Shown here piece by piece: positions 23,246-33,131 of a DNA stretch of 64,000 nt; the first letter of the stretch is position 1; every line of letters begins with the position of its first letter. A model generated the notes under the pieces. That model made no database searches. It saw only the letters and a list, made by a program, of their open reading frames with translations, and was not told the DNA's origin. This stretch comes from Candidatus Ruthia magnifica str. Cm (Calyptogena magnifica). GTDB lineage: Bacteria > Pseudomonadota > Gammaproteobacteria > PS1 > Pseudothioglobaceae. The stretch is from assembly GCF_000015105.1 (NCBI RefSeq), contig NC_008610.1, forward strand, positions 1,054,001 to 1,118,000. The letters run 5' to 3'. The position numbers and the translations under genes were made by a program.

Positions 23246-23264
23246 ACCATTTAGGAAATAAAAA

Positions 23265-23381
23265 CCTAGCAATGTCCTACTCTCACATGGGGAAACCCCA
23301 CACTACCATCGGCGCTAAGTGGTTTCACTTCTGAGTTCGGGATGGGATCAGGTGGGTCACACTCGCTATTGTCGCTAGGCA
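23265..23381 (-). rRNA. rrf: 5S ribosomal RNA
   Basis: On the minus strand the sequence begins TGCCTAGCGACAATAGCG and ends CATTGCTAGG, whose ends pair. The conserved internal CCGAACTCAGAAGTGAAAC and GATGGTAGTGTGG segments are present. It is the last gene of the rRNA operon, about 160 bases after the 23S 3' end. The ends are estimated to within a few bases. Confidence 0.95.
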
Positions 23382-23542
23382 AACTGGCTTTTAAAAAAAA
23401 TTAAAAAGTTTTTATATCTTGGCTACAAGTAAACCAGAAGATATAACAATTAAACACATTACACAAAGTTTATAGCTTATCAGCGTATTGCATGACACAT
23501 CAGCACAAAAATTACAGATTCACTCAAATAATTTAGATGTTA

Positions 23543-26452
<2,910 letters not shown>

Positions 26453-26774
26453 AACTCTAAAGTATCTGTTATGGCTAGTATTTCACCCTGAAGTCACAAA
26501 TTGTGATAAATCACAATCGGTGAATTCTTTACTTCATTGCTAGTTTTTACACTAGCGATGAGAATCCATATTTTTTGAAATTGTTATGTCAATGCAATAC
26601 ACCAATGAAAACTGTCATCACAACAGTCTTTCGCGTTGTTATATTGTATATTTATAAACTTTACTTCATGTATTAAATTGTTAAAGAGCTCCATACCCGA
26701 AGGCATGGTATAAAAACTTAAACAAAGCAACGATTTAAAATTGTCTTGTTTAAGTTTTTAAATAAAAGAATATT
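26453..26774 (-). other. Spacer between tRNA-Ala and 23S rRNA
   Basis: About 320 bases hold no gene. They contain a boxA antitermination signal (26679-26690) and, near 26453, the 5' side of the 23S processing stem. Confidence 0.7.
26679..26690 (-). promoter_or_regulatory. boxA antitermination element before 23S
   Basis: On the minus strand AGCTCTTTAACA followed by ATTTAATA closely matches the boxA consensus TGCTCTTTAACA of rRNA operons, where NusB-S10 binds to prevent Rho termination. Confidence 0.75.
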
Positions 26775-26850
26775 TGGTGGAGCCAGGGAGGATCGAACTC
26801 CCGACCTCTTGCGTGCAAGGCAAGCGCTCTCCCAGCTGAGCTATGGCCCC
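26775..26850 (-). tRNA. tRNA-Ala (anticodon UGC)
   Basis: Minus-strand cloverleaf of 76 nt, starting GGGGCCATAGCTCAGCTGGG, with anticodon loop CTTGCACG (TGC), T-loop GTTCGATCC and encoded CCA. The 16S-Ile-Ala-23S arrangement is the common gammaproteobacterial one. Confidence 0.97.
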
Positions 26851-26974
26851 TCACTTGTCTATTTTTCATTCTACGTGACTACAGTAAAAATTGTAATCCT
26901 GTATTTTACAAGAAAGACTCAACTGGGCTTGTGTTAAAGTTATTGAAAGTCTGACATGGTTAAAACGCAAAATT

Positions 26975-27051
<77 letters not shown>

Positions 27052-27268
27052 AAAATTACTTGTCTATTTTTCATTCTTCTACGTTATTTTCTTCACTCAG
27101 TTTGCTATATAGCTATTACCACACTCCTACCTTCACTAAAAAAAATGCCTTGAATAATAAAAAAATATCCTACGTAATTACTATAAAAGTTATCATGAAA
27201 AGTGTAATGTAATTCTTCTTATCTTTATAATCATCAAACAACTTGTTGTGGACACTCATACTCTTTAT

Positions 27269-28812
<1,544 letters not shown>

Positions 28813-28965
28813 TCAATTCTAACTATTTAGAACATTAGCAATATTTAAATGAATGAATTTGCTTTACGTTCAATTTTTTTAAAAGCTTATTTGCTTTAGT
28901 TTTTAAATGTGCACTTGCACAATTTTATTGTACGAGTGCCCACACAAGTTGTTTGATAGTTTTTT

Positions 28966-29152: not shown

Positions 29153-29653
29153 TCAAGTGTTATTAACATTGTTTTTACAAGGAGTTAATTTATCTTCTGA
29201 AACTACTCTATTAAGCCATTTATCGGCTTCGTCAATATCAACAATTGTATGATTGACATTCACCATTTCAAAATCATTATCGTTCCAACCCTTAATGCCC
29301 ATTTTTAATGAACGTACCTTAGTAAAACCCATTTGTTGCATAGTAAAGACTGTAAGTGTGCTACGATTACCTGAGCGGCAAATTACAACAATATTTTGGT
29401 CTCTTGCTTGTGCCAACTCGGGCACAGTGTCATCATAATTCCAAACACAAGCGCTCTCAAGTACGCCCCTAGGTACATGAATTGAACATTTAATGTGCAT
29501 CGTATCAAATTCATTTTGCTCGCGAATATCTAGTAATATTAAATCGGTATTGTGCTTAATTTCTTCTTCCAAATTCCATGGAAACACTTCATCCACTGTT
29601 GCTAGTGCTTGTGCCACTAGTTTTTGATATCCATCCATTGACTCTATTTGCAA
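29153..29653 (-). CDS. Rhodanese-domain protein in the two-component operon
   Basis: The 166-residue protein has a rhodanese domain (about 30-125): LILLDIREQNEFDTMHIKCS, then the loop VVICRSGNRSTL with the catalytic Cys, then GIKGWNDND. An extra N-terminal helix and a C-terminal tail containing one Cys (TPCKNN) flank it. No signal peptide is seen. Its start overlaps the response-regulator stop by ten bases, so it is co-translated with the kinase and regulator. This suggests a sulfur- or thiol-linked role in that signalling unit (inference). It differs from the shorter rhodanese at 21911. Confidence 0.85.
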   Translation of the reverse strand: MQIESMDGYQKLVAQALATVDEVFPWNLEEEIKHNTDLILLDIREQNEFDTMHIKCSIHVPRGVLESACVWNYDDTVPELAQARDQNIVVICRSGNRSTLTVFTMQQMGFTKVRSLKMGIKGWNDNDFEMVNVNHTIVDIDEADKWLNRVVSEDKLTPCKNNVNNT

Positions 29654-30273
29654 TAGTCTTTTTGTGTCACCATGACTGCCACTTCAACGCGTGAACTAAG
29701 TGATAATTTTTTAAGAATTGACTTAACGTGAAGTTTGACTGTGCCATCGGAGATGCCTAACTCTCTAGCAATAACTTTATTGCTATAACCACTAGATACT
29801 TGACAGGCAACTTCTTTTTCTCGACTAGTTAAGGAATCAAACGAAGGTTCATTATCGGTTAATTCGTCTCGCAGAGCTTTTGCTAGTATATATGTCATGT
29901 CTTGTGCAACAACAATTGAGCCTTTAACAACTTCATTTAAAGCATCGACCAACTCATCTGGATCCATATCCTTTAATAAATAACCTTGGGCACCATGTTT
30001 AAGACAATTACGTAAATCATACTCTTGAGTGCTGGTGGTTAACATTACAATTGGTGTAGTGATATTTTTTTCTTTAAGCGTTTTTAATACTTCGAGTCCA
30101 GACATTTGTGGCATACGTAAATCTAGTAGAATAATATCCACTGATAAAGAAGGGATTTCTGCCAAACCTTGTTCTGGAGAAGCAGCGGCACTGGCACTAA
30201 TTTGTTTAGACTCTAATAAGGCAATGAGCCCGTTACGAAATAAAGTGTGGTCGTCAATAATATAGATTTTCAT
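29644..30273 (-). CDS. NarL/FixJ-type response regulator
   Basis: The 209-residue protein has a receiver domain (1-120: IIDDHTLFRNG, phospho-acceptor Asp51 in IILLDLRMPQMSG, Thr in MLTTSTQ, Lys in YLLKDMD). A LuxR-type helix-turn-helix follows (about 145-205: LTSREKEVACQVSSGYSNKVIARELGISDGTVKLHVKSI in outline). The frame opens earlier at 30303, but the ATG at 30273 gives the standard receiver start. Its start overlaps the kinase stop by four bases. The partner is the NarX-like kinase, so it may respond to nitrate, redox or another respiratory signal. No target site is known here. Confidence 0.9.
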   Translation of the reverse strand: MKIYIIDDHTLFRNGLIALLESKQISASAAASPEQGLAEIPSLSVDIILLDLRMPQMSGLEVLKTLKEKNITTPIVMLTTSTQEYDLRNCLKHGAQGYLLKDMDPDELVDALNEVVKGSIVVAQDMTYILAKALRDELTDNEPSFDSLTSREKEVACQVSSGYSNKVIARELGISDGTVKLHVKSILKKLSLSSRVEVAVMVTQKDYCK

Positions 30274-31754
30274 GATAATTTCGGAAGGTTGACGATAACG
30301 CATGTACCTTCATCGACTTCTGATTCAATTTCAATACTAGCACCAATTCTTATTGCTCGTTCTTTCATAATATTCATGCCAATATTATTCCCCATTATTT
30401 CGCTTTCATTTTGGTCTTTTTCAAATCCAATGCCATCATCCTCAATAAGCAATTGACAATTAGGTTCTACCAAAAGCAAAACACGCACATTGCGAGCTTT
30501 GGCGTGTTTACGTATATTAGATAATGCTTCTTGAATAATACGCATAATTTGCATTTCTACTTCTGGGGATACTTGCAGCTTACCCTCAACTTGTAAATAA
30601 GTAGTAATGCCTTCTTCTGACATAAATCGATTGAGTAAGTTTGTCAAAGAAACCTCAATCCCTTTAGGGTCTAATGGCATACGAAAATTACACATCAGTT
30701 CACGCAACTCTTGATTTGCTTGAGTAATATTAGACTGTAAACTCAATACTTTGTCACTCGCATCAGATTTTTTGCCTGTTTTAAGCATATTCCCAAGTAC
30801 CGTTACTTGCAATTTTAAACTGTAAATAGTTTGAGCTAATGAATCATGTATCTCTTGTGATAAAAATAAACGTTCTTGTGACAATTCCATGCGTTTGGTT
30901 TGAGCATCTAGGCGGGCTTTATCTAATGCAATAGCGATATTTTCAGCAATAGAACTAAGAAGCGCACGTTCATCAAAAGTCAGTGAGGGCAATGTATCAA
31001 AAAATAAATTAAAAGTGCCCAGTGTTTTTCCATGATACTTAAGTGGAATAAATATCGTACCAACACTTGCTTTGGTTTGAGATTTTTTACCAACGCATTG
31101 TGCACAAGTATGTACACTAAATTGCACATAAGTATCACTTGCCATAGCGATTTCGCCACAAAAACAATCTGCACTTAATACATCTGTCACCTGACCTTGT
31201 CTATCAATAACACCTTGTGTCGCAACCAGATGGAGCTGACCATCGTCAGATAAACTGCGTGCAGCACCTGATGAAGCGCCAATCATATTAATAAAAATAT
31301 GTAAAAAGTGTGTAAATAATTCGTCAATCGAATGCATTTTATTAAGTTTTGATGACACGCTATACAGTGTCTCTAAAGAAGCAGATTTTTTACTTAAACG
31401 TTGAATTTGCTTGTTTAAAATGCTTTCCATGTCATCATATAGATGTTGATTTTCATCAATCAAATGATTAATGGCTTTTGCAACAGGCTGAAATGTGGTT
31501 CTTTGATGATCGCTTAAACGTACGCTTTGATTAGATTTATAACCATCTATCCAACTTTGTAAATCACTAAATGGTGATAAAAAATCTTGACGAATGGACA
31601 AGTAAAGACCTAAATAAACCAACAGAATTAGGACAATCAATAACATATCCACGATATTAGTCATTGTATAAGCAAGCACCACTTCATACATCAACAAGGG
31701 CGAGAACAAAATCGTGACCAAAAAGTAAATATAAAATTTTATTTTAATATTCAT
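30270..31754 (-). CDS. NarX-like sensor histidine kinase lacking a periplasmic sensor domain
   Basis: The 494-residue protein has two membrane segments (about 6-28 and 34-54) with almost no loop, a HAMP-like linker, a coiled coil (about 95-130), then a GAF-like domain (about 130-290). It ends in a HisKA_3 box with His303 in LSQEIHDSLAQTIYSL and an ATPase domain (IIQEALSNIRKHAKA, DDGIGF). NarX and NarQ carry a nitrate-binding periplasmic domain between the membrane segments; here it is absent. The GAF region holds Cys197, Cys199, Cys217 and Cys220, a spacing suited to metal, cluster or thiol sensing. I infer cytoplasmic redox or ligand sensing. Confidence 0.88.
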   Translation of the reverse strand: MNIKIKFYIYFLVTILFSPLLMYEVVLAYTMTNIVDMLLIVLILLVYLGLYLSIRQDFLSPFSDLQSWIDGYKSNQSVRLSDHQRTTFQPVAKAINHLIDENQHLYDDMESILNKQIQRLSKKSASLETLYSVSSKLNKMHSIDELFTHFLHIFINMIGASSGAARSLSDDGQLHLVATQGVIDRQGQVTDVLSADCFCGEIAMASDTYVQFSVHTCAQCVGKKSQTKASVGTIFIPLKYHGKTLGTFNLFFDTLPSLTFDERALLSSIAENIAIALDKARLDAQTKRMELSQERLFLSQEIHDSLAQTIYSLKLQVTVLGNMLKTGKKSDASDKVLSLQSNITQANQELRELMCNFRMPLDPKGIEVSLTNLLNRFMSEEGITTYLQVEGKLQVSPEVEMQIMRIIQEALSNIRKHAKARNVRVLLLVEPNCQLLIEDDGIGFEKDQNESEIMGNNIGMNIMKERAIRIGASIEIESEVDEGTCVIVNLPKLS

Positions 31755-31787
31755 ATTTTTAGTTTCAAACTAAAAGGCAATTTTCCC

Positions 31788-33131
31788 TTATTTCCCAATA
31801 CAAAAAGAAGAAAATATTTCACCAAGCAAATCATCTGATGAAAACTCTCCAGTAATACTACCCATGAATTGACCAGCAAAGCGCAAATCTTCAGCCATTA
31901 ACTCTACTACGCCATTTTCTAATTGCATAATAGCGTTGTCAATAGATGCTAATGATTCTTCTAGAGCAATGATATGACGCTTTCTGGACAGCACAACTCC
32001 TTCTGAAAAATCTTCTAATCCTGCAATATCGGACAACTCTTTTCGTAACAGCTCCATACCTTTTGAATGCTTAGCTGAAATTGACAATTGAACGATATTG
32101 TTAATCATTTCTTTCTTAACAGCACCACTTATTAAATCCACTTTATTTTTGATTAGCAATAAAGGTTGATCATCTATATTTTTAGGCAGTATTGAAAAAT
32201 CTGGCTTGTCATCTTGCGCATCAAACACCATTAACACTACATCAGCACGCTCAATTTCAAAATGCGCTCTTTTGATACCTTCTTTTTCTATCTTATCATC
32301 ACTATCATGAAGACCTGCTGTATCAATAATATTAAGCGGCATACCATTTACACAAATGGTTTCTTTTAATACATCACGTGTTGTACCTGCAATATCAGTC
32401 ACAATAGCGCTAGATTCTTGTGTGAGCGCATTCAGTAATGAAGACTTGCCAGCATTGGGCTTGCCAGCAATAACAACATTTAGCCCTTCTCGTAAAATTA
32501 CGCCTTGTGTGGCAGATTTTAAAATAGTTTCAACCGCTTGTTTAATACCTTTTGCTTTAAGTTTAACTTGTTCAAACTGTAAAAAATCAATTTCCTCATC
32601 TGAAAAATCAATAGTCGCTTCAACAAAAACTCGAAGTTCGACAATAGATTTGGTAAGTGCATTCACTTGATTAGAAAACTCGCCTGACAAAGACCTAAAT
32701 GCTGACTTGGAGGCACGTTTTGAATTGGCATTAATCATATCTGCCACCGCTTCTGCTTGCACCAAGTTCATTTTTCCGTTTAAAAAAGCACGTTTTGAAA
32801 ATTCACCTGGATCGGCCGGTTTTGCACCCATCGATATAACAGATTCTAATAAACAGCACATTACACTCATACCTCCATGACCTTGAAATTCTAATATATC
32901 TTCGCCTGTAAATGAATGCGGCTTAGGGAAAAAAAGAGCAATACCTTTATCTATTTCATCGTTTTCTTGGTCAAAAAATAAACCATAATGCGCATAACGC
33001 GGCTTGGGAACAAATCCAAGCATTTTTTTTGCAATCACTTTGCATAACGGCCCTGATACACGTACCACACCAATACCACCTTTACAAACACCACTAGCCA
33101 ATGCACAAATTGTTGTTTCACTACTGTTCAT
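31788..33131 (-). CDS. mnmE: tRNA modification GTPase MnmE
   Basis: The 447-residue protein has the N-terminal tetrahydrofolate-binding domain (DTICALAS-like start, EFQGHGG), a helical domain, the GTPase domain with the P-loop AGKPNAGKSSLLNAL, DIAGTTRD (switch I) and DTAGLHD, and the C-terminal CIGK with the essential Cys. With MnmG it makes 5-carboxymethylaminomethyluridine at U34. It lies 33 bases before the kinase gene and 7 after gshA, all on the minus strand. The usual oxaA/yidC neighbours are absent. Confidence 0.97.
   Translation of the reverse strand: MNSSETTICALASGVCKGGIGVVRVSGPLCKVIAKKMLGFVPKPRYAHYGLFFDQENDEIDKGIALFFPKPHSFTGEDILEFQGHGGMSVMCCLLESVISMGAKPADPGEFSKRAFLNGKMNLVQAEAVADMINANSKRASKSAFRSLSGEFSNQVNALTKSIVELRVFVEATIDFSDEEIDFLQFEQVKLKAKGIKQAVETILKSATQGVILREGLNVVIAGKPNAGKSSLLNALTQESSAIVTDIAGTTRDVLKETICVNGMPLNIIDTAGLHDSDDKIEKEGIKRAHFEIERADVVLMVFDAQDDKPDFSILPKNIDDQPLLLIKNKVDLISGAVKKEMINNIVQLSISAKHSKGMELLRKELSDIAGLEDFSEGVVLSRKRHIIALEESLASIDNAIMQLENGVVELMAEDLRFAGQFMGSITGEFSSDDLLGEIFSSFCIGK

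What the first reader, a model, noticed from the sequence alone, without database searches (positions are those of the whole stretch)
29153..31754. NarX/NarL-like system without a nitrate-sensing domain, coupled to a rhodanese
Kinase, regulator and rhodanese overlap by 4 and 10 bases. The kinase keeps two adjacent membrane segments but no periplasmic sensor, and has four cysteines (197, 199, 217, 220) in a GAF-like domain. A sulfurtransferase encoded in the same unit suggests a signal tied to sulfur, persulfide or redox state rather than nitrate.
Basis: partly seen in the sequence, partly recalled or inferred. Interest (0 to 1): 0.6.

Follow-up and report, generated by a model that had tools for sequence, protein, structure and literature searches.

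The report
Likely regulator of bacterial sulfur oxidation
A kinase-regulator pair that looks like a nitrate sensor without its nitrate-sensing part occurs mainly in bacteria that oxidise sulfur with the Dsr enzymes, and a matching DNA site usually sits in front of the first dsr gene, so it is probably the switch for that pathway.

Summary
In detail: three overlapping genes (sensorless NarX-like kinase, NarL-like regulator, rhodanese) and four GAF cysteines, which are conserved in 29 of 29 family kinases. Across Gammaproteobacteria three of the four usually persist, and the rhodanese is common but dispensable. The wider context is new. In many free-living relatives the unit ends the dsr (reverse sulfite reductase) cluster, after dsrK-L-J-O-P-N-R. 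In 369 class genomes kinase and DsrK co-occur: 109 both, 11 and 18 alone, 231 neither; narG shows no comparable link. Upstream of dsrA lies a 16-bp palindrome of NarL-type (7-2-7) spacing, TAYCC-N6-GGRTA: all ten scored positions in 39 of 60 regions, against 0 of 60 inside dsrA, 0 of 58 further upstream, 0 of 30 before aprB, and 0 of 7 dsr-bearing genomes without this kinase family. In the window's genome the site lies 118 nt before dsrA, one position short of perfect. I conclude this is most likely a transcriptional regulator of dsr. The signal is unknown; cysteine-based redox or sulfane-sulfur sensing is plausible but unproven. No binding or mutant test was possible.

The parts
30270..31754 (-). 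sensorless NarX/NarQ-like histidine kinase, 494 aa
   Evidence: ORF; domain matches (GAF_2, HisKA_3, HATPase_c; NarQ model 151.8 bits against a cut-off of 553)
31692..31748 (-). membrane segment 1 (residues 3-21)
   Evidence: hydropathy scan
31599..31655 (-). membrane segment 2 (residues 34-52)
   Evidence: hydropathy scan
30921..31334 (-). GAF domain (residues 141-278)
   Evidence: Pfam GAF_2 E 4e-10
31095..31166 (-). cysteine loop C197-x-C199-x17-C217-x2-C220 inside the GAF domain
   Evidence: all four C in 29 of 29 family kinases; 25, 24, 24 and 0 of 26 in distant relatives
30675..30875 (-). HisKA_3 dimerisation/phosphoacceptor domain (residues 294-360; H303)
   Evidence: H303 invariant in the 52-row alignment A2
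30279..30557 (-). HATPase_c catalytic domain (residues 400-492)
29644..30273 (-). NarL-like response regulator, 209 aa; D51 phosphoacceptor; recognition helix GTVKLHVK
   Evidence: NarL structure 1a04, E 1.3e-46; best regulator match per locus, 103 of 110 loci matched, D51 in 103 of 103, helix K/L/K in 101 of 101 covered
29153..29653 (-). single-domain rhodanese, 166 aa; active-site loop CRSGNRS with C92 (codon 29378-29380)
   Evidence: Rhodanese E 2e-17; C92 and C69 conserved in 26 of 26
31788..33131 (-). mnmE, directly upstream (33 nt before the kinase); neighbour, not part of the system

Best explanation
The kinase and regulator form a two-component system dedicated to the oxidative dsr pathway (reverse dissimilatory sulfite reductase). 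Proposed mechanism: (1) the membrane-anchored kinase has no periplasmic sensor and reads an intracellular signal through its GAF domain; the conserved cysteines make a redox, sulfane-sulfur or metal/Fe-S signal the likeliest kind (inferred). (2) It autophosphorylates at H303 and passes phosphate to D51 of the regulator (from family knowledge). (3) The regulator binds a 7-2-7 inverted repeat, typically TAYCCC-N4-GGGRTA, upstream of dsrA, and activates the dsr operon (site shown by comparison; binding and sign of regulation inferred). (4) The rhodanese is a probably co-transcribed sulfurtransferase that more likely serves the same sulfur-relay pathway than senses (inferred). In the window's genome the unit lies about 160 kb from dsr, but a near-perfect site before dsrA is retained.
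For: Synteny: among 80 loci of the named collection, gene clusters identified from one representative each as dsrN-type occur in 55, dsrR-type 46, dsrP 35, dsrL 32, dsrO 31, dsrJ 29, dsrK 25 (identities; order). In 61 of 109 genomes with both, the kinase lies within 20 kb of dsrK, median 8.2 kb. Co-occurrence: 109/11/18/231 in 369 genomes; 51 families with both, of 56 kinase and 60 DsrK families. Within the window's family: 29 genomes have kinase and dsrA, 6 neither, 1 and 1 discordant, of 37. Site: 39 of 60 perfect, 51 of 60 with at least 9 of 10 positions; of these 60, only G018 had no kinase match. The 30 regions had not been seen when the pattern was written and gave 20 perfect of 30. Controls: 0 of 60 inside dsrA, 0 of 58 at -900 to -450, 0 of 30 before aprB. 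Of 11 dsrA regions from genomes first scored kinase-negative, 2 were perfect, and those two carry a GAF-less form of the kinase and a NarL-like regulator; the 7 without such a kinase gave 0. The presumed DNA-contact residues are K/L/K in 101 of 101 regulators covered.
Against: No binding, transcription or mutant data. Fisher tests ignore phylogeny. Nine of 60 dsrA regions score below 9. Half of the 60 helped to shape the pattern. Seven system-free genomes are a small control, chosen after the sites were seen; one (G106) scores 9. Of the four genomes with a GAF-less kinase, one scores 9 (G133) and one 8 (G321). The palindrome could belong to another regulator. In the window's genome the unit is not near dsr, and its site departs at one of the ten scored positions (TATTCCCTAAGGGATA; shuffle p 0.045 alone). 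11 of 120 kinase-positive genomes lack DsrK at its cut-off; two of them (G143, G270) have the hit within 8 kb of narG and are probably true NarX. 18 of 127 DsrK genomes had no kinase at the threshold used.
Confidence: 0.78

Rival explanations
1. It is a NarX/NarL nitrate-respiration system that lost its sensor domain and still regulates nitrate or nitrite genes.
For: Closest named models are NarQ/NarX and NarL. 7 of 10 relatives have HAMP and 10 of 10 GAF, as in NarX. E. coli NarX has its own cysteine cluster in the same region.
Against: No sensor domain in the window kinase or in 10 of 10 relatives scanned. The window's genome has no narG match at E up to 1e-60. Kinase and narG: 30 both, 90 and 30 alone, 219 neither, about as weak as DsrK with narG (30/97/30/212); inside DsrK-positive genomes p 0.24. 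napA and other nitrate genes were not tested.
Confidence: 0.07
2. The dsrA palindrome is bound by an unrelated regulator, and the kinase-regulator pair only hitchhikes in the dsr cluster.
For: No binding data. Site and system are both inherited with dsr, so they would co-vary in any case. One genome without this kinase family (G106) scores 9 of 10.
Against: The site has NarL geometry and NarL-like half-sites (NarL consensus recalled). It is not perfect in any of 7 dsr-bearing genomes without the kinase family, and perfect in two of four with a reduced form.
Confidence: 0.13
3. One reading: the rhodanese loads sulfane sulfur onto the GAF cysteines, so the kinase is a persulfide sensor.
For: Adjacent overlapping rhodanese with intact active-site cysteine; conserved cysteines. 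Two reduced genomes have a different sulfurtransferase-like ORF after the regulator (one of them matched).
Against: Cysteine motif and rhodanese are not coupled across 61 loci (29/20/9/3). GAF-less kinases occur in dsr-bearing genomes. The cysteine loop is of low confidence in the model, so no geometry.
Confidence: 0.3
4. Compatible with dsr control: the GAF cysteines bind an Fe-S cluster or metal and sense oxygen or redox state, by analogy with NreB.
For: Three or four conserved cysteines. The NarX/NarQ review states that GAF domains can bind Fe-S clusters (PMC8199190, passages).
Against: Usually three cysteines outside the family, and 15 of 80 loci lack the full three-cysteine motif. [quoted passage not shown] No structure or metal data.
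Confidence: 0.3

Closest known systems
NarX/NarQ with NarL/NarP (E. coli nitrate two-component systems)
   Same: Membrane kinase with GAF-like, HisKA_3 and HATPase_c; NarL-type regulator with similar recognition helix and 7-2-7 inverted-repeat sites (NarL site consensus and contact residues recalled); NarX also has a central cysteine cluster (PMC3519889, passages).
   Different: No nitrate-sensor domain; cysteines spaced differently; linked to dsr, not nitrate reductase; companion rhodanese.
NreBC of Bacillus licheniformis (PMC9918477, abstract, outline and passages)
   Same: Two-component system responding to sulfide and activating sulfide-oxidation genes, in a cluster with a rhodanese-like protein. 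That NreC is of the NarL family is recalled.
   Different: PAS-domain kinase in a Gram-positive; controls sqr and pdo, not dsr.
sHdrR/SoxR of Hyphomicrobium denitrificans (PMC12423496, start of abstract and passages)
   Same: Regulators of sulfur oxidation responding to sulfane sulfur.
   Different: ArsR-type repressors; sHdr/Sox instead of Dsr.
DsrR (IscA-like protein of the dsr cluster)
   Same: [quoted passage not shown] its gene directly precedes the kinase in many loci here.
   Different: Not a two-component system; no DNA-binding role seen in what I read. The primary paper is not held.
RsrS-RsrR of Acidithiobacillus caldus (PMC5093147, search listing only)
   Same: Two-component control of a sulfur-oxidation pathway.
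   Different: Tetrathionate pathway; other genes. Relationship not tested.

Membership tests
NarX/NarQ nitrate-sensing kinases | NarX-like N-terminal nitrate-sensor domain (the defining feature per PMC8199190, passages) | tested here: not met
   none in the window kinase or in 10 of 10 relatives; two membrane segments 12 residues apart
NarX/NarQ nitrate-sensing kinases | NCBIfam equivalog cut-off | tested here: not met
   NarQ 151.8 of 553 bits, NarX 117.1 of 578 bits
NarX/NarQ nitrate-sensing kinases | GAF-like + HisKA_3 + HATPase_c transmitter | tested here: met
NarX/NarQ nitrate-sensing kinases | HAMP domain | tested here: inconclusive
   not found in the window kinase; found at E up to 0.01 in 7 of 10 relatives
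NarL response regulators | receiver + GerE/LuxR-type helix-turn-helix | tested here: met
   NarL structure E 1.3e-46
NarL response regulators | NCBIfam NarL equivalog cut-off | tested here: not met
   224.3 of 250 bits, a narrow miss
NarL response regulators | binds 7-2-7 inverted heptamers (recalled) | not testable with these tools
   candidate sites found; binding not measured
NreB oxygen sensors | PAS domain with four Fe-S cysteines (recalled) | tested here: not met
   GAF, not PAS, found by Pfam; Fe-S binding not testable here
dsr-linked sensorless NarXL group described here | kinase + NarL-like regulator, no sensor domain, co-occurring with dsr, palindrome before dsrA | tested here: met
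   in the window's genome the unit is unlinked from dsr and the site scores 9 of 10

The most novel reading that the evidence does not exclude
This is the dedicated transcriptional activator of the oxidative dsr operon across most dsr-bearing Gammaproteobacteria, kept even in symbiont genomes of 1.0-1.2 Mb. It senses cytoplasmic sulfane sulfur or redox state through a GAF cysteine cluster in place of the lost nitrate sensor, and acts through a conserved TAYCCC-N4-GGGRTA operator.
Probability: 0.4. Interest if true: 0.85.

Novelty: new variant of a known kind. Interest (0 to 1): 0.72.

Why it matters
Dsr-based sulfur oxidation is used by SUP05, clam and mussel symbionts and many sediment bacteria (recalled in part). 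In the papers seen I found no DNA-binding regulator assigned to dsr; DsrR is reported to take part in regulation (PMC11406059, passages). A two-component system plus a predicted operator gives a directly testable regulator, with sites and residues to mutate. It would show how a nitrate-sensing architecture was re-purposed, and would explain why a strongly reduced symbiont keeps this system.

Tried and rejected
Nitrate sensing: rejected on missing sensor domain, no narG match in the window's genome and no specific narG association. Rhodanese as obligatory signal partner: weakened by the 61-locus table. A regulon beyond dsr: an exact scan of 14 kinase-positive genomes for TAYCCC-N4-GGGRTA gave 17 sites, 8 of them before dsrA; the reversed-pattern control gave 3. 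Of the 9 others, 8 were held: 5 fall inside ORFs of a mechanical list, L226 and L228 lie between ORFs and were not followed, and L221 (G070) lies between aprBA and a molybdopterin oxidoreductase gene. Four of the 14 genomes had no exact site. The aprB lead failed: 0 of 30 perfect and 1 of 30 at 9 of 10. Those 30 are the loci held of 42 matches; G070 was not among them; L245 was out of frame at the assumed start; aprB may often not be first in its operon, so it is not a promoter-matched control. A 15-bp form of the site was tried first and replaced by the 16-bp form. Viral contigs: no relative found with six peptide patterns, which reach close relatives only. Kinase structure model: mean pLDDT 80.5, but the cysteine loop is low-confidence and I had no coordinates, so cysteine geometry was not tested. 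The fold search listed generic histidine kinases in its top 50 (DesK, HK853, VraS, phytochromes and others).

Limits: at most 4 first-look candidates per genome were scored, at most 2, so some genomes may be wrongly negative. Papers: six searches bearing on dsr regulation listed nothing that I saw assigning this two-component system to dsr; I opened passages of eight papers on this question, not whole texts. Most subscription papers are not held, including two on regulation of dsr genes and on DsrR in Allochromatium vinosum, seen only as citations. PMC4136832 (passages) reports a NarL/NarX homologue and a full dsr cluster in one sulfur oxidiser without linking them in what I saw.
Full report
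WHAT IS THERE. The three minus-strand genes are as described: kinase 30270-31754, regulator 29644-30273, rhodanese 29153-29653, with overlaps of 4 and 10 bases. The rhodanese start is a TTG; an ATG at 29638 would remove its overlap. The window is part of one 1,160,782-base contig, a size I recall as that of Candidatus Ruthia magnifica, a clam symbiont; no call names it. Upstream lie mnmE, 33 nt away, and gshA; downstream is the rRNA operon.

DOMAINS. The kinase has two close hydrophobic segments (residues 3-21, 34-52), GAF_2, HisKA_3 and HATPase_c. It falls far below the NarQ and NarX equivalog cut-offs. The regulator is NarL-like (224.3 bits against a cut-off of 250; NarL structure 1a04 E 1.3e-46). 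The rhodanese has an intact CRSGNRS loop.

CONSERVATION. Of 37 genomes in the window's family (f1), 30 have a kinase match; G013's is a fragment at a contig end, and G017 and G028 are partial. In 29 family loci the four cysteines are C in 29 of 29. All three genes are found in 25 of 29; L015 lacks regulator and rhodanese on the stretch held, L027 lacks the rhodanese, L028 and L029 are cut. In four of the 25 (L003, L005, L006, L007) a gap of 263-575 nt separates regulator and rhodanese. In 26 distant kinases C197, C199, C217 and C220 are present in 25, 24, 24 and 0. In 80 named loci (the best 80 of 397 confirmed candidates, ranked by similarity to a distant member, with the candidate list itself capped) the C-x-C-G...C motif is in 65, a regulator is adjacent in 77, and the rhodanese follows within 2.5 kb in 38 of the 61 loci with at least 1.8 kb left. 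Cysteine motif against rhodanese in those 61: 29 both, 20 cysteines only, 9 rhodanese only, 3 neither.

THE DSR LINK. Clustering neighbours of the 80 loci gives seven gene clusters, upstream of the kinase in the listed orders, present in 55, 46, 35, 32, 31, 29 and 25 loci. NCBIfam and Pfam on one representative each identify DsrO and DsrK over their cut-offs, DsrP and DsrJ below cut-off, a CobB-like protein (DsrN), an IscA-like protein (DsrR) and an NAD(P)-binding protein (DsrL); the names DsrN, DsrR and DsrL rest on the cluster order described for Allochromatium vinosum (PMC3368242, passages). A siroheme-synthase-type gene occurs downstream in 13 loci. So in many free-living sulfur oxidisers, with records named Thiohalomonas, Thioalkalivibrio, Thiothrix and others, the unit is the 3' end of the dsr cluster. 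Not all loci show it: many contigs end too soon, and some (for example L072, L094, L101) show other neighbours.

CO-OCCURRENCE. In 369 class genomes the kinase (E up to 1e-40, 120 genomes) and DsrK over its cut-off (127 genomes) coincide in 109; 11 have only the kinase, 18 only DsrK, 231 neither. Five genomes with DsrK matches below cut-off were counted as negative. Fisher p 2e-60 is not corrected for phylogeny. Of the 109, 61 have kinase and dsrK within 20 kb; of the other 48, 6 are on one contig but further apart and 42 on different contigs. By family: 56 with kinase, 60 with DsrK, 51 with both. narG over cut-off (60 genomes): 30 both, 90 and 30 alone, 219 neither; within DsrK-positive genomes p 0.24. 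Within f1: kinase and dsrA in 29, neither in 6, kinase only G016, dsrA only G018 (81% complete), of 37; one dsrA (G027) is below cut-off. In the window's genome dsrA and dsrK lie about 160 kb away, with K, L, J, O, P, N and R all matched, so the unit is separate from dsr there.

THE SITE. Aligning dsrA upstream regions of the family revealed a conserved inverted repeat. Its 16-bp form, TAYCC-N6-GGRTA with 10 scored positions, fits the 7-2-7 spacing of NarL sites (spacing and heptamer recalled). In 450 nt before dsrA: the set that shaped the pattern (25 of f1, 5 other genomes) gave 19 of 30 perfect and 26 of 30 at 9 or more. A second set, 30 of the 109 genomes, each of a different family, whose upstream sequences I had not seen when the pattern was written, gave 20 of 30 perfect and 25 of 30 at 9 or more; 21 of 30 had shuffle p up to 0.05. 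The first set includes G018, where no kinase was found; it holds 30 of the 35 dsrA matches less L151 (too short), plus the window's genome. Controls: inside dsrA 0 of 60 perfect and 5 at 9; at -900 to -450, 0 of 58 perfect and 2 at 9; before aprB 0 of 30 perfect and 1 at 9. In 27 genomes where both genes were read, dsrA was perfect in 18 and at least 9 in 23.

KINASE-NEGATIVE GENOMES. Of 18 genomes with DsrK but no kinase hit, 12 have a dsrA match and 11 could be read (L214 too short): 2 perfect (G075, G215), 4 at 9 or more. A profile search then gave strong matches (E up to 6e-67) to a kinase lacking the GAF domain in G075, G321, G215 and G133, and a partial one at a contig end in G103. By reading the ORFs, each of the four follows a dsrR-like ORF and precedes a NarL-like regulator; G133 has a rhodanese-like ORF after it, and G075 and G321 a different sulfurtransferase-like ORF. 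Only G075's were searched: IscA-like and 3-mercaptopyruvate-sulfurtransferase-like, both below cut-off. Leaving those four, 0 of 7 are perfect and 1 of 7 (G106) scores 9; Fisher p 0.0014 against 39 of 60. Four of the 7 have weaker profile hits (E 1e-24 to 1e-29), which I took for other histidine kinases without further test. This split was made after seeing the sites, so it is a consistency check rather than a blind test.

IN THE WINDOW'S GENOME. The first, 15-bp family pattern (up to 2 mismatches) hits once in the genome, on the minus strand; read as 16 bp it is TATTCCCTAAGGGATA at C1:927603-927618, 118 nt before the dsrA ATG. The reversed control pattern hits three times, so the single hit is weak evidence by itself and the argument rests on conservation. 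A TACCACT heptamer and a TATAAT element follow. The window itself holds no perfect site and five at 9 of 10.

MECHANISM. Shown: the genes, their conservation, the dsr association, the conserved palindrome, D51 in 103 of 103 and K/L/K recognition-helix residues in 101 of 101 regulators covered (best match per locus, 103 of 110 loci matched). Inferred: phosphotransfer, binding, activation, and the nature of the signal. Because some lineages have a GAF-less kinase with the regulator, and two of four of these a perfect site, the cysteines cannot be required for the dsr link as such; they may define or tune the signal where present. The rhodanese fits a metabolic role: a study of A. vinosum supposes a yet unknown sulfurtransferase feeding DsrEFH (PMC3397948, passages).

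NOVELTY. The architecture is a variant of NarXL; its dedication to dsr is what I did not find in print in the library searched. DsrR is the one dsr-cluster protein that I saw reported as taking part in regulation (PMC11406059, passages). The nearest functional parallel seen is NreBC of B. licheniformis, a two-component system that senses sulfide (PMC9918477).

Against the calls I corrected: how often the 10-base overlap recurs, which sites lie inside ORFs, the dependence of the first site set on pattern discovery, the status of the 7 control genomes, and the mention of DsrR.

Noticed in passing
L231 (G075) 1270-2826; L232 (G321) 1267-2867: Two genomes of about 1.1 Mb carry a GAF-less kinase, by eye without a hydrophobic N-terminus, plus NarL-like regulator, after a dsrR-like ORF and followed by a sulfurtransferase-like ORF (3-mercaptopyruvate sulfurtransferase type in L231).
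   Followed up: partly
L221 (G070 C1:101744-101759): A perfect copy of the palindrome lies between divergent aprBA and a molybdopterin oxidoreductase gene, possibly a lineage-specific extension of the regulon to sulfite oxidation.
   Followed up: partly
L226 (G097 C3:305261) and L228 (G070 C1:498560): Two further exact copies of the palindrome lie between ORFs of a mechanical list; targets not identified.
   Followed up: no
window 23264-28814: rRNA operon (16S, two tRNAs, 23S, 5S) on the minus strand directly downstream of the rhodanese.
   Followed up: no
window 31755-31787: Only 33 nt separate mnmE and the kinase, so in this genome the system may be transcribed from the mnmE promoter.
   Followed up: no
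L054 and L036 kinases: A few distant kinases have a longer N-terminus (672 and 695 aa in all); L054 has its two predicted membrane segments about 135 residues apart, so some relatives may have an extra N-terminal domain.
   Followed up: no
L112 16167-16532 and 25 other loci: A LexA/UmuD-like peptidase S24 gene (one representative searched) on the opposite strand recurs downstream of the unit in 26 of 80 loci.
   Followed up: no
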